Assembly: GCA_900068845.1 (NCBI GenBank)
Contig: CEFQ01000008.1
Coordinates: 455,358 to 519,357 of the forward strand
Length of the DNA: 64,000 nucleotides
DNA from: Enterobacter ludwigii
GTDB taxonomy: Bacteria; Pseudomonadota; Gammaproteobacteria; Enterobacterales; Enterobacteriaceae
Reading direction: 5' to 3'
In this document: positions 10,745 through 42,910 of the stretch, in pieces
Layout: every line of letters begins with the position of its first letter
How positions within the stretch are numbered: position 1 is the first letter of the stretch
Program-made: the position numbers and the translations under genes
The notes under the pieces: generated by a model
Told to the model about the DNA's origin: nothing
Database searches by the model: none
Seen by the model: only the letters and a program-made list of their open reading frames with translations

Positions 10745-11851
10745 ATGTGGATTTGGCAACGGCCAGAATGGCCGCAGTTCCACTGGCAGGACGACAAAAT
10801 ATTGCCGCGCCTGCGTCAGTTGCAGCAACAACGTGGCGTTTTGCTGGGGCGTGCCAGCGTGCAGGAGAATAGCGAACAACAAACGCTGGATACGCTGCTG
10901 AGCAACATCCTTTCATCCTCAGCGATTGAGGATGAACGCATCAATGCGCAATCGGTAAGATCTTCTCTCGCACGGCGTTTGGGCGTTTCGCTCGATCAAC
11001 CTTATCCGGTTTCAGAACGTTCAGAAGGGCTGGCTACCATGATGATGGATGCCATCACACAACGCGATGAAACCCTTACCCTGGCGCGATTGTATCAGTG
11101 GCATCGCTGGTTATTCCCGGAAGGTGAGTGGACGATCAAGCGATTGAATGTAGGAACGTTGCGTGGTGATGAGCCGATGCAGGTGGTTTCGGGGCGTATC
11201 GATCGACCAACGGTGCATTTTGAAGCGCCGCCGCGTGCCGGTCTGAAAGCTCAACTCGATGAATTTGTTGCCTGGTTTAATCACAGTCGCGAGGATCCGC
11301 TGCTCGATCCGCTATTGCGCGCCGCGCTTTGCCATCTGTGGTTCGTCACGCTGCACCCGTTTGAGGATGGAAATGGGCGCATCACCCGCGCACTAACCGA
11401 TTTGGCGTTAGCACAGGCTGATAGCAAAAGCATCCGTTTGTATGCCATGTCCGCATCGATCCTGGCGCGACGTGCGGATTATTACCGCATCCTGCAGGAG
11501 ACGCAGCGCGGTGCAATGGACGTCACAGATTGGCTGCTGTGGTTTTGCGATGTGATGAATGACAGCCTGGAACACGCGTTGAAAACCGTTACGCGCACGC
11601 AAGATAAAGCGCGTTTCTGGCTGATGCATAACGCTGCTGAGCTTAGCGCGGAGCAAACCCGCGTGCTGAATCGCTTGCTGGATGGCGGTGAACACGGTTT
11701 TAGCGAAGGCATCAGCGCAGGTCAGTACCAGAAGGTGGCGAAAGTGAGTAAAGCCACGGCCACACGGCATCTGACCGAACTGCTGGCGAAAGGTTGTCTG
11801 CAGAAATTACCCGGCGGCGGACGCAGTACCCGCTACCAGATTAAATGCTGA
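10745..11851 (+). CDS. Fic family AMP-transferase with DUF4172 N-terminus and C-terminal winged helix
   Basis: A 368-residue protein. The N-terminus (MWIWQRPEWPQFHW) is DUF4172. Residues 57-63 (S-S-S-A-I-E-D) match the class II inhibitory helix, in which Glu62 blocks ATP binding. The Fic active site HPFEDGNGR at 204-212 is complete: catalytic His204, the D/E-GN-G-R phosphate loop and the metal ligand. The last about 70 residues (VSKATATRHLTELLAKGCLQKLPGGGRSTRYQIK) form a winged helix. Such enzymes transfer AMP from ATP to a hydroxyl side chain of a target protein. The target is unknown. A ggagaaa precedes the ATG. It is followed by a palindromic repeat. Confidence 0.92.
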   Translation: MWIWQRPEWPQFHWQDDKILPRLRQLQQQRGVLLGRASVQENSEQQTLDTLLSNILSSSAIEDERINAQSVRSSLARRLGVSLDQPYPVSERSEGLATMMMDAITQRDETLTLARLYQWHRWLFPEGEWTIKRLNVGTLRGDEPMQVVSGRIDRPTVHFEAPPRAGLKAQLDEFVAWFNHSREDPLLDPLLRAALCHLWFVTLHPFEDGNGRITRALTDLALAQADSKSIRLYAMSASILARRADYYRILQETQRGAMDVTDWLLWFCDVMNDSLEHALKTVTRTQDKARFWLMHNAAELSAEQTRVLNRLLDGGEHGFSEGISAGQYQKVAKVSKATATRHLTELLAKGCLQKLPGGGRSTRYQIKC

Positions 11852-12419: not shown

Positions 12420-13214
12420 TTAAGCGAGTAATTCTTCCAGGAACAGCGCCAGGGCTTTACGCGGATCGTCCTCTTCCGAGACGATCATCTCAATGCCCCA
12501 CTGTCCCAGCACCTCTTTCGCCACCGGATTATTGCGGTTAGTGAACAGATAAGATTTGGGACGTGCGGTAGCCAGCCCAGTGCGGCCCCACATTTTTGTC
12601 AGGCGGTAGAATAACAGACGAATATTGAAATCGCTGATGCTATAGCCGACGAACAACACCGAATTGCCCATCACGTCGTGCGTGAGTTTGATATCAAGCG
12701 GCGAATCAAAATAGAGGCGCTCAAAGTAGCTGCTCTCATCGAGCACGATTGAGGTATCGTCGTCGAAATCACCATGAAGTTTGATGATATGCCGCTTATC
12801 TTCGGTCAGAGACACCAAATCTGCTGCATTTGCCACTTTGCTGTAAGGTACATTGTGCGCCTCGTGCGCCATCTCCAGCCAGCGATCGTAATTGGTGGTG
12901 TAGATGCGAGAGAAGTTACCTTGCGTAATCATGGTGTGGATTTCAGAACTGCGCACATCAATATCCGGACGATGCCATTCGCGATCCATCCAACTGCGCA
13001 GCGGCCCCAGCGAGCCTTTACGCTGTTTGTAATATTCCGCCAGCGACAAATGCGTACCGTAGGTATTGAAGATTTTCGGGTCGTAGCCGAGTTCTTTGGC
13101 CAGATGAGCAATCAGCTCATGCCACTCAGGCAGGCCAAGATTGCGTGAAATGCCCGCCCCCGCAAACAAGATCAGTTTACCGGCGTCGTAGGCGCGTTTA
13201 AGCTCCGGTTTCAT
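12420..13214 (-). CDS. SIR2-like domain protein (predicted NAD-consuming effector)
   Basis: A 264-residue stand-alone SIR2-family domain. The NAD-binding motifs are all present: GAGIS at 19-23, TTNYD at 106-110 (Asn of the T-N-x-D motif), LHGDFD at 146-151 (catalytic His147) and VGYSISDFNI at 189-198. There is no zinc-binding Cys tetrad, as in the SIR2_2 type found in anti-phage NADases rather than in deacetylases. It overlaps the upstream Ham1-like gene by 4 bases (ATGA), so the two are co-translated. A role in stress or phage defence by NAD depletion is inferred from family knowledge, not shown by sequence. Confidence 0.85.
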   Translation of the reverse strand: MKPELKRAYDAGKLILFAGAGISRNLGLPEWHELIAHLAKELGYDPKIFNTYGTHLSLAEYYKQRKGSLGPLRSWMDREWHRPDIDVRSSEIHTMITQGNFSRIYTTNYDRWLEMAHEAHNVPYSKVANAADLVSLTEDKRHIIKLHGDFDDDTSIVLDESSYFERLYFDSPLDIKLTHDVMGNSVLFVGYSISDFNIRLLFYRLTKMWGRTGLATARPKSYLFTNRNNPVAKEVLGQWGIEMIVSEEDDPRKALALFLEELLA

Positions 13215-13771
13215 GCCAGTCCTCGCGACGTTTTCAAAAAGGTAGCAAAGCGATCCAACGCCAAACGGCGCATAGAAATCTCATTTTTTAGTTCGCCCAT
13301 TTCGGCGAAAGTTTGCGTGTGCCCTTCCGGGATAAATACGCAGTCCCACTGAAATTCGCGTGGGCCAGCAGGCTCAGTGGCGATGGTGCCGCGCAGTTCG
13401 CCTTCAAACTGATACATTTTTTGCCCGTCACAATAACCTAATACCGTTTTCGCCGTAACGCAGGGGCTATCCAGACCGTTAACCAGCTTGGTAAATCGCT
13501 CGGCGTTCAGACGGCTCCAGAAGATGCGTGTGAGCCCGGCGGGTAAGCCGTTCAAGCCATCCAGATAGAGCCCGGTATGTTCAACAAACAGTGGACGACC
13601 GATAATCGAGAACGCTTTGGTGAGCTTGTCGCGCACCAGCTCAACCTCATTTTCAGTCTGAATCTCTTCGATACGGCGCGCGATAGGGAGTACTTCGACA
13701 CCTACTGGCCCAAGGATTGTACGGACCTCGGCCAGCTTTAGCTCATTTGCAGATAGGAAACGTATTTTCAT
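13211..13771 (-). CDS. Divergent Ham1/RdgB-like nucleotide pyrophosphatase domain protein
   Basis: About 186 residues with the Ham1 (inosine triphosphate pyrophosphatase) layout: SANELKLAEVRTIL at 7-20 for the substrate-gripping N/K motif, a loop at 63-80, and WDCVFIPEGHTQTFAEM at 142-158 matching the conserved FxPxG-TFAE strand. Two canonical motifs are altered: the usual DSG acid is EHTG (His65 in place of Asp) and the usual SHR-x-A is SMRRLA (166-171). It may therefore bind a nucleotide without ordinary dITP/XTP hydrolysis. It is upstream of and overlaps the SIR2 gene. A GTG at 13780 is an alternative start; neither start has a strong ribosome site. Confidence 0.75.
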   Translation of the reverse strand: MKIRFLSANELKLAEVRTILGPVGVEVLPIARRIEEIQTENEVELVRDKLTKAFSIIGRPLFVEHTGLYLDGLNGLPAGLTRIFWSRLNAERFTKLVNGLDSPCVTAKTVLGYCDGQKMYQFEGELRGTIATEPAGPREFQWDCVFIPEGHTQTFAEMGELKNEISMRRLALDRFATFLKTSRGLA

Positions 13772-13985
13772 TGCAATCACTAAGTTAAGAGTGAATTTAC
13801 GTGCTGTTTGAGACTTTCCATTTCGATTTCATTCTAACGCGTGGAGAGATAACTGGATAGGAACAATCTCTGATGGTAATAAAAGTATAATACGAAAAAA
13901 ATTTATGACACTCGCCTCGCTTAACTCTAGAATAGCGATGAAAAGAAATGTGATTAATATGAAAGTAAAGAAATGAGAACTACAG

Positions 13986-36828: not shown

Positions 36829-37665
36829 TTATTGCAAATCAACATTCAACGCCGGCGCCCCAAAGCTGACTAATTCCGCATTCGACGCCGTAAAATAACC
36901 TCGCCAGAATATCTCAAGCTGCTGAATAATTTTCCCTGAGCGATAATTGTTTTTCGCATCGGTATCAATCAATCCTGCACCTGCGACAAACACCTTAGCG
37001 CCGGCAAAATTCGCTAATAAATTCTGCTGTTTAACCTGCTGCAACTCTTTCTCTGGCGAAAGCAAACGCAGCGCGTTATTGCGGTAGAAGCTATCGAAAG
37101 CGCTGTTCTCCAACATATCGGAGATCAGAAACAGAGTACGTGACGCTTTTTCATCCTGCTCAAGATCATGACTAATGCGTTTAAGGCTATCAAGGATCTC
37201 ACTTTTAGCGATGTTATCGCCCTTCTCCGCGAAACTTTTTGCCATTAGTCCACCGAAGGCGCTGGCGAAATATTGCTTCTGCTCGCTCAGGCATTTGTCG
37301 AGGTTCTTCAAACTCTCCATGCCTTGATTGTCGCGGATTTTCTTGTCCGTGAGTAACGGCTCCAGACGACCATCAAATAAGCGCTGCATGAAATTGTTCT
37401 GCAACAACGCCGAGAACTGATACAGCACCACATGATCGCCGGGGTGACTAAAACGCATGATCTGCTGCCAACTGGCATTTTTGATCTGCAGCGGCACTTT
37501 AACCGTTTGATCAATAATCACCACCAGCTCACGACCGCTGTTGGCCGGGCGATATTGACTGAGTTTGGCATAGTCATAACAGCTCGGAATATCGTTGCGA
37601 TCCGCAGCCTGCGCCAGGGCACTCACCCCGGCTAACAGCAGCAAACACCATTTGCTGATCTTCAC
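36829..37665 (-). CDS. Exported protein with VWA-like features, unknown function
   Basis: About 278 residues from a GTG at 37665, chosen because AGAGGG lies 7 bases upstream and the resulting N-terminus is a signal peptide (KISKWCLLLLAGVSALAQA, cleavage before ADR). The mature protein has a Rossmann-like alternation starting ELVVIIDQTVKVPLQIKNASW and later SRTLFLISDMLENSAF, resembling a von Willebrand A fold with a degraded MIDAS site (D-Q-T instead of D-x-S-x-S). It should be periplasmic or lipid-free envelope-associated. It follows the membrane protein gene by 4 bases. I do not recognise the family. Confidence 0.6.
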   Translation of the reverse strand: MKISKWCLLLLAGVSALAQAADRNDIPSCYDYAKLSQYRPANSGRELVVIIDQTVKVPLQIKNASWQQIMRFSHPGDHVVLYQFSALLQNNFMQRLFDGRLEPLLTDKKIRDNQGMESLKNLDKCLSEQKQYFASAFGGLMAKSFAEKGDNIAKSEILDSLKRISHDLEQDEKASRTLFLISDMLENSAFDSFYRNNALRLLSPEKELQQVKQQNLLANFAGAKVFVAGAGLIDTDAKNNYRSGKIIQQLEIFWRGYFTASNAELVSFGAPALNVDLQ

Positions 37666-37669
37666 CTGA

Positions 37670-39244
37670 TTACCCTCTGGCCTTATTGAGCACGCGCTGC
37701 ACTTTACGACGACTGAGCAGCGCTTCATTTGACAGACCCAAATCCTCAGCTACCAAAAGCAGTTCTTCATCATCTAAGGCTGTCAAATCACCTAACTCCG
37801 CAATGCGCGCCTTTTCATCGGCGTAAGCAGCAGGTGCCGTTTCCAGTGCCACCGGTGCAGGCGTTGGCGTTTTAGGTTCAAATACCAAAGCCGGTTCTGG
37901 CTGATGTACCGGGCGCTCTGGAGCAACGGTTGCACGTGTGGCGTTAAATTGCTGATGCTGATCGTCGGCCAGTGCTTTATCGCGCTGCTTACCGCGCACG
38001 TAATCGTCGAAGGTCCGAACATCAGTTTGTGCAATGCTGGCGCTACTGGCGCGTTGCATCGCCATACGATTCTGCAAGCTTGCCAGTTTATCCTGCGCAT
38101 CACGCTCTACGCGCTCACGGCGCATGGCGTACCACGCGGCAAACTCTTCAGAGCTACTGAAATTACCAATATATTTCGCCGCCAAGCGAGATTCGATGCC
38201 GACCAGAGAACGGTAATAACCAATCAAAATACCGATAATTTGCACGCCAATGAAAATCACCGACAGAATAATGAAGGTCAATTTGGAGGCGAACACGCGG
38301 TTGTCACTGACCTCTTTCGCCGCTTGCTTATCAGCCTGCTGATTATCTTCCACCGCTTGCTGTGGCAACTCAAAAGGTGAAGCGTTGCTCGCCGCGCTGG
38401 TTTGGCTAAACGGCGTACCATTGACGGCCTGGGTTTCGGCGGCATTGATGGTTGCCGCACGAATGAAATAGGCACCTACCGCAAAGGTGACGATCAGCAA
38501 CAGCGTCACAACCGTTTGTACATATTGCGGTTTTGCACCAATACCGTGGTTCACACGGTTGAGCATTTGCAAATAGCTGGGTGCGTCATCATCAATGCGG
38601 CTGTTTTCCAGCGAGACGCGGTTGTCTTTAACCAACGCCTGCGCGTGGCCTTCCAGACGTGCTTCTTTATGCCAGTAGCGGATTTTGCTCAGCAGCGTAT
38701 TTTTGTGTAACTGCGTGCCCATTAAATGCGTTGCGGGCACCAAAATCACACCAATCAGCACCGAAACCACAATCGCCGATAGCTCCGCCTGGTTCGCAGA
38801 GATGTTGTTGGCAATGAATGGCGAAAGTACCAGCGCAAAGATAAAGGCTTCCAGAATGACGAGGGCGATACTGCATAACCACAACACCACGCTGGTCGGT
38901 TTGCGGCCCCGCTCATCCACTTTGTTCAGATAGTTAACGCAGCGCAGATAAAAATCGGCATCGCGGTTGGAGATGCTATGAAACTGATAGAACTTGCCAC
39001 ACAAAGCTTCTTCTGCCGGGTGCCAGATGCGTCCGCCGGTGCCTGTACGGCGAGATTCATGGCTGCGTGACAAGCGGGTGATATGGCCAAAAAGTGGCAG
39101 GGAACAAAACAGGTTGAGGAAGAAGTAACGAACCTGATCCCACCATTTGATCACGCCAAGTGTTAGCGCCAACAGCCCGAAAAGCGGCCAAAAGATGTAG
39201 CGATAGGTGGCGATCGCCTGCATTAAGGTATCTAAAATTTCCAT
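37670..39244 (-). CDS. Multi-spanning inner membrane protein with long cytoplasmic C-terminus, unknown function
   Basis: A 524-residue protein. Hydrophobic segments are seen at about 12-32, 118-140, 152-175, 248-268 and 326-346, with an initial domain containing HESRRTGTGGRIWHPAEEALCG. After the last segment a charged helical region (AAWYAMRRERVERDAQDKLASLQNRMAMQRASS) suggests a coiled coil, followed by a Pro/Ala-rich linker and a small C-terminal helical end (LDDEELLLVAEDLGLSNEALLSRRKVQRVLNKA). It lies between an OmpA-like lipoprotein and a VWA-like exported protein, so it may be the inner-membrane part of an envelope-spanning complex. I do not recognise the family. Confidence 0.6.
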   Translation of the reverse strand: MEILDTLMQAIATYRYIFWPLFGLLALTLGVIKWWDQVRYFFLNLFCSLPLFGHITRLSRSHESRRTGTGGRIWHPAEEALCGKFYQFHSISNRDADFYLRCVNYLNKVDERGRKPTSVVLWLCSIALVILEAFIFALVLSPFIANNISANQAELSAIVVSVLIGVILVPATHLMGTQLHKNTLLSKIRYWHKEARLEGHAQALVKDNRVSLENSRIDDDAPSYLQMLNRVNHGIGAKPQYVQTVVTLLLIVTFAVGAYFIRAATINAAETQAVNGTPFSQTSAASNASPFELPQQAVEDNQQADKQAAKEVSDNRVFASKLTFIILSVIFIGVQIIGILIGYYRSLVGIESRLAAKYIGNFSSSEEFAAWYAMRRERVERDAQDKLASLQNRMAMQRASSASIAQTDVRTFDDYVRGKQRDKALADDQHQQFNATRATVAPERPVHQPEPALVFEPKTPTPAPVALETAPAAYADEKARIAELGDLTALDDEELLLVAEDLGLSNEALLSRRKVQRVLNKARG

Positions 39245-39259
39245 AAGAGAGTTATCCGT

Positions 39260-40744
39260 TTATCCACGCTGAGGTGCGTAACTGGCCAGCCACGGCTGAC
39301 GATGATTGCTGTAGAAGAGTTGTCCTTGTTGCGCAGGCTTGCCGGATTTTGGCAGCAGGAGATCAACGCAAGAGATAGGGTGTTGCTGGGCATCGGCGAT
39401 ATAGACGCGATAAAGAATGCTGTCTTCACCTTCCCAACTGTTAGCAACCGTCGCCATGCCTTGTAGCGTTTTGCGATTGCCTTGTGCGTAGTTCGGCGTG
39501 ATCAGTACTTGTGGGTTTTGCGTCACCACCGCACCGTCTTTGAGAACAAACACCGGCGTCAACGTCACCAAATTGCCATTGACCAATCCCGCCCACGCGC
39601 GCCCGTTCATATTAGGTAGATATTCCAGCGTATCATGCTGTTCGATCGCCTTACCGCTGGCTAAATTCTTTGCCAGTCCGCTGACGCGCGGAAGATCGGT
39701 GAGACAGCTGCTGCTAACGCTGCTGGCTTGCGCCTGGCTAATCAGGCTGAAACCCTGCGACAGCGGCTTTAAGTTACTGGCCAGGCCAGATACCTGTGTA
39801 CTGGTGGGCTTGCCACCAAAATCGACAAAGTTAGCGGGGTTGCTCGCGGCAATGGCTTGGGTAGGTTGGGTCACAACTGCCGTGGCTTTTGCTTCAGCCG
39901 GTGTTGTCACTGCCGCATTAGCAGGCTTTGTGCTTGTCTTACGCGCTGCGGGTTTCGTCACTGAACTGTGTGCCAGGCCGCTTTCCGCCGCCGAACTGTG
40001 GCGCAAATAAAGGGGATTATTGCTTTCCAGCGCCAGGAGCTGTCGCAATAAGGCTGCGTTCGCCAATGCCACAATCTCAACCCGACGGTTCTGCGCCCGA
40101 CCGGTCGCCGAATCGTTATCCGCTAAGGGCCGCGAAGAGCCTACGCCCTGGAAATAGAGCTGGCTGGCGTTGATCCCACTTTGCTCCAGCACCCGTCCCA
40201 CGTTGCGCGCACGGGCTTCTGAAAGCTGCTGATTATACCCGGCATTCCCGCTGGCATCGGTATGTCCCACGACCAGCAACACATCCGAGGTTGCCTGCTG
40301 GCCACCTTTCATGGCTGCCGCGATTTTCTGCACCTGACGCAATCCGCTGGTGGTCAATTCTGCGCTATCGACGCCAAACATGCTGCCGTCTTCAACCTGT
40401 GCAACAATCCCCACCGGCTCCTGCTTGCTGTTCTCCTGCGCCTTAAGTGCCTGAGTGCTGATGCGAATTTTTTCTTCCTGCGCGACTTTAGCCAGCGCCT
40501 GTTCACGATTCTGCCAAACATTCCCGACAACGCATCCTGCCACGCCGCCCGCCAGTCCACCTACCAGGGCTTTTTTTGCGTCATGGGTGACCAGATAAGT
40601 AATGCCGCCGCCTAATGCGGCCCCGCCAATACACCCGGCGGCGGTTCCGTAATCCCGGGCGAAGTCATTCATTGATGCGCAGCTGGAAGTCAGTGACGCA
40701 GCGATCACTATCGATGCTGCCTTTCTTGAAAAGGGTAAATTCAC
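39260..40744 (-). CDS. OmpA-family lipoprotein with glycine-zipper region, unknown function
   Basis: A 494-residue lipoprotein. A lipid signal is suggested by the N-terminus with ASLTSSC and Cys22 or nearby. Next comes a glycine-rich zipper segment (CIGGAALGGGITYLVTHDAKKALVGGLAGGVAGCVVGN). Residues about 115-230 are an OmpA_C peptidoglycan-binding domain with DSAELTTSGLRQVQKIAAAM, VVGHTDASGNAGYNQQLSEARARNV and GRAQNRRVEIV (the Asp and Arg that grip meso-diaminopimelate). After this a long Thr/Ala-rich linker leads to a C-terminal domain (about 330-490) of unknown type. It is the first gene of the operon. Confidence 0.75.
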   Translation of the reverse strand: MNLPFSRKAASIVIAASLTSSCASMNDFARDYGTAAGCIGGAALGGGITYLVTHDAKKALVGGLAGGVAGCVVGNVWQNREQALAKVAQEEKIRISTQALKAQENSKQEPVGIVAQVEDGSMFGVDSAELTTSGLRQVQKIAAAMKGGQQATSDVLLVVGHTDASGNAGYNQQLSEARARNVGRVLEQSGINASQLYFQGVGSSRPLADNDSATGRAQNRRVEIVALANAALLRQLLALESNNPLYLRHSSAAESGLAHSSVTKPAARKTSTKPANAAVTTPAEAKATAVVTQPTQAIAASNPANFVDFGGKPTSTQVSGLASNLKPLSQGFSLISQAQASSVSSSCLTDLPRVSGLAKNLASGKAIEQHDTLEYLPNMNGRAWAGLVNGNLVTLTPVFVLKDGAVVTQNPQVLITPNYAQGNRKTLQGMATVANSWEGEDSILYRVYIADAQQHPISCVDLLLPKSGKPAQQGQLFYSNHRQPWLASYAPQRG

Positions 40745-41220: not shown

Positions 41221-41266
41221 CTTCACTGCTTAAGCTAGGCCCATCTGAGCTTTTATGGATGGACCA

Positions 41267-42910
41267 ATGATATTTTCGCTGCGCAAAAGACCGACGCTAA
41301 GTCGGCTGACCTTTATTACGCTATTTTCACTTTATATTGCGGTGTTCCTGAATATTGCCTTTTATCGTCAGGTGATTGAAGCGATGCCGCTTGATACGCT
41401 GCGCACAATAGCCGTCTTCGCCTCCATGCCGCTAGTGGCCTTTAGCGTAATCAATATTATTGCCACGCTGGCCTCCTTTGTGTGGCTCGATCGGCTGATT
41501 CTCGCGCTGTTTATATTGGTTGCGGCTGCGGCGCAATATTTCATCTGGACCTTCGGTATCGTTATCGATCGCTCGATGATCGTGAATATTCTGGATACCA
41601 CACCGTCAGAATCCTTGGCCTTATTGTCATCCAAGTTAATTATTACCCTGGGTGGCAGCGGCTTGCTCGCGGCCCTGTTGGTTTTCTGGATTGGGATCAA
41701 TAATAGCCAAACTCTCTGGAAAAACATTGCCAAACGCGCTGCGTCCATCGTCGTGTCGATAATCTGCATCGCCCTGGTGGCGACGTTTTTCTATAAAGAT
41801 TACGCCTCGCTGTTCCGTAATCAAAAAGAGCTGATTAAGTCGCTCAGTCCTTCCAATTCGATCGTGGCGACGCTTTCCTGGTACCACCACAGCCGCACCG
41901 CTAATTTGCCGCTGGTAAAAATTGGTTTAGACGCCAAACAACAACCAGCAATGTTGGCCGGTGCAAAGAAAAACCTGACGATTTTAGTGGTGGGTGAAAC
42001 CACGCGCGCGGTGAATTTTCAGCTGAATGGTTATGGCCGTGAAACCACGCCGTTGCTGGCGAAAGACGATGTCTCTTATTTTCCGAATACCCAGTCTTGC
42101 GGCACGGCTACTGCGGTCTCTTTGCCTTGTATGTTCTCTAATATGCCGCGCGCACATTATGATGATCAGCTCGCTGATCATCAGGAAGGCATGCTCGATA
42201 TTATCCAGCGTGCCGGTGTGCAGGTTTTATGGCATGACAATGACGGCGGCTGTAAAGGTGCCTGCGACCGCGTGCCGCATCAGGATATGACCAGTCTGAA
42301 TCTGGCGAATATGTGTCACGATGGGGAATGTTATGACGAGGTGTTATTCCACGGCATTGAGGATTATATTAAAAACCTCAAAGGCAACGGCGTAATTGTT
42401 TTGCATACCATTGGCAGTCACGGCCCAACCTATTACAACCGCTATCCGCCACAGTTTAAAAAATTCACGCCGACGTGCGATACCAATCAAATTCAGGATT
42501 GTTCGCAACAGCAACTGGTGAATACTTATGACAACACTATTCTGTATATCGATTACATTGTCGATAAAGCGATTAATGTGCTGAAAGCGCATCAGGATCA
42601 CTATACCACCAGCCTGGTTTATCTTTCCGATCACGGTGAATCTTTAGGTGAAAACGGTGCCTATTTGCACGGTATGCCGTATGCAATTGCGCCTGATGTG
42701 CAGAAACATGTGCCGATGCTGATTTGGTTATCACCGGATTATCAACAGCGCTATGGCGTGAGTAAAAGCTGTGTCGATAAGCTCGCGACGCATCAGGGTT
42801 ATTCGCAGGATAATCTGTTCTCCACCCTGCTGGGATTAACGGGGATTCAGACCCGTGAATATCAGCCTGCGGATGATATTCTGGCCAGTTGTCGGGCCAC
42901 GCAGGGTTAG
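41267..42910 (+). CDS. eptA: Lipid A phosphoethanolamine transferase EptA (PmrC)
   Basis: A 547-residue protein, the same length as E. coli EptA and alike almost throughout. Five membrane segments in the first about 180 residues, then the periplasmic sulfatase-fold domain with VVGETTR (about 242-248), the nucleophile Thr280 in SCGTATAVSLPCMF, HTIGSHGPTYYNRYP, and DHGESLGENG (zinc ligands Asp, His). It adds phosphoethanolamine from phosphatidylethanolamine to lipid A phosphates, lowering negative charge and giving polymyxin resistance. The ATG at 41267 follows GGATGGACCA; an upstream ATG at 41255 would add 4 residues. The pmrAB genes are not adjacent. Confidence 0.95.
   Translation: MIFSLRKRPTLSRLTFITLFSLYIAVFLNIAFYRQVIEAMPLDTLRTIAVFASMPLVAFSVINIIATLASFVWLDRLILALFILVAAAAQYFIWTFGIVIDRSMIVNILDTTPSESLALLSSKLIITLGGSGLLAALLVFWIGINNSQTLWKNIAKRAASIVVSIICIALVATFFYKDYASLFRNQKELIKSLSPSNSIVATLSWYHHSRTANLPLVKIGLDAKQQPAMLAGAKKNLTILVVGETTRAVNFQLNGYGRETTPLLAKDDVSYFPNTQSCGTATAVSLPCMFSNMPRAHYDDQLADHQEGMLDIIQRAGVQVLWHDNDGGCKGACDRVPHQDMTSLNLANMCHDGECYDEVLFHGIEDYIKNLKGNGVIVLHTIGSHGPTYYNRYPPQFKKFTPTCDTNQIQDCSQQQLVNTYDNTILYIDYIVDKAINVLKAHQDHYTTSLVYLSDHGESLGENGAYLHGMPYAIAPDVQKHVPMLIWLSPDYQQRYGVSKSCVDKLATHQGYSQDNLFSTLLGLTGIQTREYQPADDILASCRATQG

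What the first reader, a model, noticed from the sequence alone, without database searches (positions are those of the whole stretch)
36829..40744. Unrecognised three-gene envelope operon: OmpA lipoprotein, multi-spanning membrane protein, exported VWA-like protein
The three genes are spaced 4 and 15 bases apart in one direction. Their features put one product in the outer membrane bound to peptidoglycan (lipoprotein signal, glycine zipper, OmpA_C), one in the inner membrane with a large cytoplasmic coiled part, and one in the periplasm with a degraded VWA fold. This is the layout of an envelope-spanning apparatus or stress sensor. It lacks MotA/MotB features, so it is not Zorya or a Tol/Ton-type motor.
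Basis: partly seen in the sequence, partly recalled or inferred. Interest (0 to 1): 0.75.

Follow-up and report, generated by a model that had tools for sequence, protein, structure and literature searches.

The report
New conserved three-gene envelope complex
Three neighbouring genes in a Pantoea-type bacterium, kept together in distantly related bacteria, most likely build an undescribed machine that links the outer membrane and cell wall to the inner membrane; relatives of two of its parts occur beside a wall-binding motor-like protein and a nuclease in other bacteria.

Summary
In detail: minus-strand operon A (OmpA lipoprotein, 494 aa), 15-base gap, B (five-helix membrane protein, 524 aa), 4-base gap, C (exported VWA-fold protein, 278 aa). 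B and C reach no curated Pfam cut-off. All 23 loci opened through a B hit carry A and C in order; 10 more found through C do too (33, a few counted twice), in three proteobacterial classes and Campylobacterota. In 398 Pseudomonadota genomes A's C-terminal domain occurs in 8, exactly those with the operon. It is sparse: 3 of 36 genomes of the genus, its own included.

'Envelope-spanning' is supported. 'Not Zorya' is right, but C (firmly) and B (through an intermediate family, moderately) have relatives in alphaproteobacterial operons with a MotB/ZorB-like wall-binding protein and, in 5 of 8, an SNase or HNH nuclease; whether those operons hold a true motor is unproven. Stand-alone C relatives lie beside flgT and an LPP20 (flgP-type) gene in 8 of 9 testable loci.

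Best reading: A anchors to wall and outer membrane, C is a periplasmic VWA adaptor, B relays a signal to its variable cytoplasmic tail. Anti-phage defence is the likeliest role, unproven.

The parts
39260..40744 (-). Gene A: OmpA-type lipoprotein, 494 aa (GTG start)
   Evidence: ORF; OmpA Pfam 77.2 bits; upstream of B in the relatives opened
40679..40744 (-). Lipoprotein signal of A, up to Cys22 (LTSSC-A)
   Evidence: sequence; Cys kept in 10 of 10 rows with letters there; Ala at +2 suggests outer-membrane sorting (recalled Lol rule)
40505..40648 (-). Glycine zipper of A, aa 33-80
   Evidence: Gly-zipper_Omp 21.5 bits, under the curated cut-off of 25
40085..40381 (-). OmpA peptidoglycan-binding domain of A, aa 122-220
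   Evidence: Pfam PF00691 E 1.3e-21; Asp163 in 12 of 13 and Arg178 in 13 of 13 rows
39260..39829 (-). C-terminal domain of A, aa 306-494, no known family; paired Cys347/Cys459
   Evidence: no Pfam match; found in 8 of 398 genomes, all with the operon; both Cys in 12 of 13 rows, both absent in the 13th
37670..39244 (-). Gene B: five-helix inner-membrane protein, 524 aa
   Evidence: no Pfam match at the cut-off, no NCBIfam or PADLOC match; charge pattern of loops; Glu132 and Arg262 in 14 of 14, His173 in 13 of 14 rows
37670..38212 (-). Cytoplasmic tail of B, aa 345-524, variable between lineages
   Evidence: 26 Lys+Arg; ends in zinc ribbons in Aliarcobacter; last 50 aa a fairly confident helical stretch of the model
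36829..37665 (-). Gene C: exported VWA-fold protein, 278 aa (GTG start)
   Evidence: ORF; no Pfam match; structure comparison
37606..37665 (-). Signal peptide of C (ends near AQA)
   Evidence: sequence, by eye
36829..37542 (-). VWA domain of C with partial MIDAS (Asp52, Thr54, Ser155, Asp183) and paired Cys29/Cys125

Best explanation
A, B and C form one trans-envelope complex. A is lipid-anchored in the outer membrane and holds the wall through its OmpA domain; its unique C-terminal domain presents a docking face in the periplasm. C, a soluble periplasmic VWA protein, is the adaptor that couples wall-anchored A to the periplasmic face of B. B, with a conserved Glu132/His173 pair in its second and third helices and Arg262 at the periplasmic end of the fourth, passes a conformational or ion-linked signal to its large, lineage-variable cytoplasmic tail. 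The system reads the state of wall and outer membrane and signals inward; the likeliest occasion is attack on the envelope, phage entry above all, as relatives of B and C sit in operons with a MotB/ZorB-like wall-binding protein and a nuclease. Shown: operon, linkage, C kinship; well supported: locations, VWA fold; moderate: B kinship. Inferred: physical contacts, signal direction, defence role (about 0.3 on its own).
For: Linkage: 23 of 23 loci opened through B carry A and C, and 10 found through C carry A and B; A's unique domain in 8 of 398 genomes, the same 8 that hold C of this type and B (chance overlap 3e-15 if genomes were independent, which related genomes are not). Placement of the products. 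VWA fold of C. C against the alphaproteobacterial C': hhalign 98.8 per cent, E 1.3e-16. B against the intermediate family B'' (five strict members): 65.6 per cent, E 5.8e-5; B' against B'': 93.9 per cent, E 1.5e-7; six control membrane families at most 1.4 per cent. B' and C' followed by a membrane/coiled-coil protein and a ZorB-like protein in 8 of 11 loci opened, with a nuclease fused or next door in 5 of those 8. Stand-alone C beside flgT and an LPP20 lipoprotein gene in 8 of 9 testable loci; FlgO, FlgP and FlgT make up the Vibrio H-ring (PMC7990780, passages). Sparse, accessory spread: 3 of 36 genomes of the genus, own included; 18 records of the plasmid collection.
Against: No interaction, phenotype or usable model of B (pLDDT 50, pTM 0.25). 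Direct B against B' is weak (13.9 per cent; best control 7.9 per cent) and a score-rank test was not significant (p 0.11 and 0.57). The protein in the ZorA position is not shown to be a motor subunit: only one of four scanned matched PF01618, and under its cut-off (E 0.0071); hhalign to PF01618 proteins 0.7 per cent; no MotA, ExbB or ZorA chain among PDB matches of its membrane part. The A-B-C form has no recognisable effector. Of seven A-B-C neighbour genes that I picked for PADLOC, one matched strongly (PtuA-like, 2.3 kb from A in Paraburkholderia caribensis), two weakly, four not. B had no match in 50,697 phage records.
Confidence: 0.46

Rival explanations
1. A passive structural tether: A-B-C is a mechanical bridge that strengthens the envelope (a Pal-like link with an inner-membrane clamp) and does not signal.
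For: Placement of the parts and wall-binding residues; A's best NCBIfam matches are YiaD-type lipoproteins.
Against: Sparse distribution, invariant Glu and Arg and near-invariant His in B, and a big variable cytoplasmic tail with zinc ribbons in one lineage are odd for a passive tether.
Confidence: 0.2
2. A scaffold for another machine (motility, secretion or adhesion): C recruits or positions a larger assembly, as its relatives may do near the polar flagellum.
For: C relatives beside flgT and LPP20 genes in 8 of 9 testable loci and beside a ZorB-like protein; the H-ring is needed for stator assembly (PMC7990780, passages). Two Paraburkholderia loci have a two-partner secretion pair nearby and one P. 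agglomerans locus a chemoreceptor gene next door.
Against: No flagellar or secretion gene is shared by the annotated A-B-C neighbourhoods read; two further records had no annotation.
Confidence: 0.16
3. An envelope-stress sensor of housekeeping type (not defence), reporting wall or outer-membrane damage to a cytoplasmic regulator.
For: Same anatomy as the best explanation; a phosphoethanolamine transferase gene lies next door in the window and in Pantoea sp. SO10.
Against: The neighbour differs in P. agglomerans; no regulator gene was seen to travel with the operon across genera (and the part that was shown).
Confidence: 0.13
4. The three genes are merely co-transcribed and act separately.
For: C-family proteins exist without A and B (10 of 14 strong class hits).
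Against: A's C-terminal domain and B were not found apart in the samples searched; same order in three proteobacterial classes and Campylobacterota, where identity to the window proteins falls to 19-35 per cent.
Confidence: 0.04

Closest known systems
Zorya (ZorA/ZorB with ZorC-D, ZorE or ZorF-G)
   Same: Wall-binding OmpA domain; membrane partner with a large cytoplasmic part; relatives of B and C recur next to a ZorB-like gene in Alphaproteobacteria
   Different: No ZorA/MotA homologue here; A is a lipoprotein and not a single-helix ZorB; no recognisable effector; extra VWA protein C
Tol-Pal / Pal and YiaD lipoproteins
   Same: Outer-membrane lipoprotein with OmpA domain
   Different: A scores under the curated cut-offs of YiaD (142 against 175 bits) and Pal (51.7 against 125.35) and has an extra C-terminal domain; B is not TolQ-like
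FlgO/FlgP/FlgT H-ring and MotX/MotY T-ring of polar flagella
   Same: Stand-alone relatives of C lie beside flgT and LPP20 (flgP-type) genes; both are periplasmic or outer-membrane scaffolds
   Different: No FlgT or LPP20 match in the operon; a role of the C relative in flagella is not tested
FtsZl1/VWA/OmpA gene clusters (Makarova and Koonin 2010, PMC2875224, passages read)
   Same: VWA and OmpA-domain proteins encoded together, proposed to remodel membranes
   Different: Built around an FtsZ-like protein, often with kinase and GTPase genes; none is annotated in the A-B-C neighbourhoods read
TonB/TolA-like force transducers with a VWA C-terminal domain (PMC12204202, passages read)
   Same: A periplasmic VWA domain coupled to an inner-membrane motor is proposed there
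   Different: Their VWA domain is fused behind a helix and linker; C is a separate exported protein and A-B-C has no motor

Membership tests
Zorya | ZorA: MotA/ExbB-type motor subunit | tested here: not met
   No Pfam cut-off reached and no PADLOC match of B; hhalign against seven PF01618 proteins 0.5 per cent
Zorya | ZorB: one transmembrane helix plus OmpA domain | tested here: not met
   A has the OmpA domain (PADLOC ZorB3 E 2.4e-15 over aa 121-229 only) but a lipoprotein signal instead of the helix
Zorya | Cytoplasmic effector ZorC-D, ZorE or ZorF-G | tested here: inconclusive
   No PADLOC match of B or C; none annotated in the A-B-C regions read; the window's neighbours were not all scanned
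Tol-Pal | Pal equivalog score | tested here: not met
   TIGR02802 51.7 against 125.35 bits
YiaD lipoprotein family | NF053611 equivalog score | tested here: not met
   142 against 175 bits
VWA superfamily (protein C) | VWA (Rossmann-type) fold | tested here: met
   50 rows shown dominated by VWA-type domains by description, Z 8.7-10.3, 133-180 residues aligned; the model is moderate and no Foldseek match is counted at E 0.001 or less
VWA superfamily (protein C) | Complete MIDAS (DxSxS, T, D) | tested here: not met
   Four positions kept in 14 of 14 rows (Thr or Ser at 54, Ser at 155), the last Ser of DxSxS in 1 of 14
FtsZl1/VWA/OmpA clusters | FtsZ-like 1 gene in the cluster | tested here: inconclusive
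   None among annotated neighbours read; no profile search for FtsZl1 was made
MotA/TolQ/ExbB (protein B) | PF01618 match | tested here: not met
   Not among the 25 families shown of 33 weak ones for 14 B proteins; hhalign 0.5 per cent

The most novel reading that the evidence does not exclude
A-B-C is one member of an undescribed superfamily of envelope sentinels built on a B-C core (membrane transducer plus periplasmic VWA adaptor) that plugs into a wall-anchored protein. In Alphaproteobacteria the same core works with a divergent Zorya-like motor (its ZorB-like subunit with an invariant Glu in the helix where ZorB has Asp) linked to a nuclease that would act in the periplasm, cutting phage or foreign DNA as it enters; in the Pantoea type the breach signal goes through B's exchangeable cytoplasmic tail instead.
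Probability: 0.22. Interest if true: 0.87.

Novelty: new variant of a known kind. Interest (0 to 1): 0.6.

Why it matters
If right, it adds a family of wall-anchored trans-envelope machines to Tol-Pal, Mot and Zorya, with a VWA adaptor as the shared part, and gives a testable role to two protein families that the records read call hypothetical. The alphaproteobacterial relatives could be a Zorya-like system with a nuclease facing the periplasm, which would allow the question of how wall-anchored machines sense phage entry to be tested with a second, independent design. The relatives beside flgT offer an untested candidate component of the polar flagellar scaffold.

Tried and rejected
B as a MotA/TolQ/ExbB homologue: suggested by its helix layout; not supported at profile level. 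One protein that reads like MotA (L125) matched the B'' query at E 5.6e-6 and 3.3e-6 in reverse; I treat it as a contaminant, so the B-B'' test was repeated with five strict members, and those lower figures are the ones I rely on.

The alphaproteobacterial protein in the ZorA position as a MotA/ZorA homologue: PF01618 at E 0.0071, under the cut-off, in one of four proteins scanned, PADLOC ZorA2 at 1.3e-5 in the one scanned, partly over its coiled part. The ZorB-like profile does match MotB and PomB chains (best E 2.5e-6).

Fold search with the model of B: not run, since pTM 0.25 would give meaningless matches. Profiles of B, C and B' against the PDB gave chance-level or coiled-coil rows. Weak sub-threshold family matches of single members (B: Tetraspanin E 0.001, Ni_hydr_CYTB 0.0049, DUF2207_C 0.013 in three; C: HROB 0.0024, DUF58 0.012; NCBIfam SAG1386 0.0021 in two B) were taken as chance.

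Phage or prophage cargo: no relative of B in viral contigs (one pattern scan) or phage records, nor of a Rhizobium B' in phage records. E. coli: no DNA match of B in the genome collection (DNA search only). Direct B against B' comparison: not significant alone.

Literature: listings for OmpA, VWA domain, three-gene operon, envelope, FlgT-FlgP-von Willebrand (none), Zorya-von Willebrand-OmpA (20 of 74 listed), ZorA-ZorB-thermonuclease (none), staphylococcal nuclease-MotA-OmpA-phage (one unrelated) and OmpA family lipoprotein-von Willebrand-Pantoea-envelope showed no description of this operon; the library lacks most subscription papers and preprints.

Rows not followed: two marginal C hits (G407, G062); 11 of 18 plasmid-collection records; 21 of 24; G854, a fragment at a contig end. 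The B search missed G274, where a B was found only by looking next to C, so B counts are lower bounds. The output was cut.


Full report
What is there. The window lies on contig 8 of a 5.08-Mb assembly; the closest named relatives are Pantoea, with about 98 per cent identical B on three Pantoea plasmids of 744-779 kb and on a Pantoea endophytica contig. The three genes stand as described: A 40744-39260, B 39244-37670, C 37665-36829, minus strand, gaps 15 and 4 bases.

A carries a lipoprotein signal, a weak glycine zipper, an OmpA domain and a C-terminal domain of 189 residues with no known family. The wall-binding Asp and Arg of OmpA domains (recalled from OmpA work) are kept in 12 and 13 of 13 rows, and two cysteines of the C-terminal domain are kept together in 12 and lost together in the 13th, which suggests a disulphide. 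B has five helices, the charges of its loops giving N-out/C-in; Glu132, Gly176 and Arg262 are kept in 14 of 14 rows and His173 in 13 of 14. Its tail varies; it ends in zinc ribbons in Aliarcobacter. C has a signal peptide and a VWA fold; four of five MIDAS positions are kept, and a Cys pair (29/125) is kept in 13 and lost together in 1 of 14 rows.

Unit, not coincidence. I opened 23 loci found through B: 11 from genome contigs, 3 of the genus search, 7 of 18 plasmid-collection records and 2 of the class search (G388, G308). All carry A upstream and C downstream in the same direction. Ten more found through C carry A and B: two plasmid records, G274 and seven of the phylum search. Blemishes: A is cut by the contig end in L011; an extra ORF lies between B and C in L029; A in L030 starts inside the OmpA domain. 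In 369 class genomes B was found in 3 and C in 16, of which 14 strong; 4 of these 14 are A-B-C and 10 have C without A or B. In 398 phylum genomes C was found in 10: 8 A-B-C and 2 of the third type below; A's C-terminal domain was found in 8, the same 8.

Three settings of C. (1) A-B-C. (2) Alone: 10 loci; in 8 a flgT gene and an LPP20 lipoprotein gene (flgP-type) lie divergently next door, 1 is cut by the contig end, 1 lacks them; C there is plainly the same family (hhalign 100 per cent, E 1.6e-61). FlgO, FlgP and FlgT make up the H-ring of Vibrio polar flagella (PMC7990780, passages). (3) In Alphaproteobacteria C' follows a four-helix protein B' and precedes a membrane/coiled-coil protein (ZorA position) and a ZorB-like protein: complete in 8 of 11 loci opened (L088, L098-L102, L104, L105); in L103 no C' ORF was called, and L106 and L107 show only B' and C'. 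C against C' is homologous beyond doubt (98.8 per cent, E 1.3e-16).

How sure the third setting is. The ZorB-like protein of L088 matches PADLOC ZorB2 at E 1.4e-27, and a profile of six such proteins matches MotB chains at 2.5e-6 to 3.2e-6 and PomB chains at about 3e-4 to 1e-3. OmpA passes Pfam's cut-off in two of the five scanned (L088, L099), is under it in L098 and L102 and absent in L101; L101 and L105 are called ZorB-like only by the shared N-terminal helix motif. That helix holds an invariant Glu in 8 of 8; PMC11890865 (passages) reports that ZorB Asp24, implicated in ion conductance, is crucial for defence; that the Glu takes its place is my reading. The protein in the ZorA position is not shown to be a motor subunit. 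A nuclease is fused behind the OmpA region (GmrSD_C/HNH in L088, SNase in L102) or next door (L099 as annotated, there on the opposite strand; L100; L105) in 5 of the 8. A periplasmic place for it follows from the fusions and from a hydrophobic N-terminus in L100; none was seen in L099 and L105.

B and B'. Directly the match is weak (13.9 per cent, E 0.002; best control 7.9 per cent) and a rank test fails. A third family, B'', found next to C-like genes in five loci (L087, L132, L133, L134, L136), bridges them: with five strict members, B-B'' 65.6 per cent (E 5.8e-5), B'-B'' 93.9 per cent (E 1.5e-7), merged B+B'' against B' 90.8 per cent (E 1.2e-6), six control families at most 1.4 per cent. 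A wider B'' set gives 96.0 and 97.6 per cent but held the likely contaminant. In the strict alignment Glu132 and the His-x-x-Gly of B line up with Glu and His-x-x-Gly of B''. Other B''-like proteins lie without a C: beside OmpA-domain ORFs in L130 and L131, and in L129. I take the kinship of B, B'' and B' as likely, not proven.

Mechanism. Wall and outer-membrane anchoring by A, a periplasmic VWA adaptor C and an inner-membrane transducer B follow from placement. That C bridges A and B is inferred from the linkage and from the recurring theme that C relatives accompany wall- or outer-membrane-anchored assemblies. That the signal runs inward is inferred from B's large variable tail. Defence is inferred from kinship with nuclease-bearing operons, sparse spread (3 of 36 genomes of the genus, own included; a broken remnant in Pantoea piersonii) and presence on plasmids. 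Against it: of seven neighbour genes of A-B-C loci picked for PADLOC one matched strongly (PtuA-like, L016), two weakly (L015, L081) and four not.

Comparison. It fails the tested defining features of Zorya (motor subunit, single-helix ZorB), Pal and the YiaD family, and B is not MotA/ExbB-like at profile level. FtsZl1/VWA/OmpA clusters (PMC2875224, passages) share two domain types but are built around other genes. PMC12204202 (passages) describes proposed motor-driven transducers with a VWA end, a further hint that VWA domains serve envelope-spanning machines. A word search of PMC12505986 found no 'vWA' and no 'nuclease' in its text on Mot-like proteins. I rate novelty as a new variant of a known kind, the kind being wall-anchored trans-envelope transducers; by membership it belongs to none of the named families tested.

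Noticed in passing
L088, L098, L099, L100, L101, L102, L104, L105: Alphaproteobacterial four-gene operon B'-C'-membrane/coiled-coil protein-ZorB-like protein, with SNase or HNH nuclease fused or adjacent in 5 of 8; may be an undescribed Zorya-like system, motor identity unproven.
   Followed up: partly
L070-L079: Stand-alone VWA relatives of C encoded divergently from flgT and an LPP20 (flgP-type) gene in 8 of 9 testable gammaproteobacterial loci; candidate polar-flagellum scaffold component.
   Followed up: partly
L129:6328-8343: A B''-type membrane protein whose N-terminus reads by eye like a TIR domain (not tested by any search).
   Followed up: no
window 12420-13780: SIR2-like protein (PADLOC ThsA1 E 5.1e-27) overlapping by 4 bases a gene that reads like a Ham1-type NTPase (no PADLOC match; name recalled); possible defence pair.
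   Followed up: partly
window 10745-11851: Fic-type protein matching PADLOC SoFic, E 1.5e-41.
   Followed up: no
window 41255-42910: Phosphoethanolamine transferase gene (EptA as annotated in Pantoea sp. SO10) divergent from the operon; the neighbour is different in P. agglomerans.
   Followed up: no
L015:8004-9611: The Aliarcobacter B protein ends in zinc ribbons (best Pfam E 1.8e-13 among the B proteins scanned), showing an exchangeable cytoplasmic tail.
   Followed up: no
L028:8001-8278: A Pantoea piersonii plasmid keeps only a broken remnant of C upstream of the frl genes, where P. agglomerans has the operon.
   Followed up: no
L029:4928-5773: Extra ORF without Pfam match between B and C in genome G388.
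   Followed up: no
L088:8287-10527: Protein with weak HATPase_c and TopoVI/Spo11-type Toprim matches just upstream of the B'-C' operon.
   Followed up: no
L016:2783-4210: PtuA-like (Septu) ATPase 2.3 kb upstream of the A-B-C operon in Paraburkholderia caribensis.
   Followed up: no
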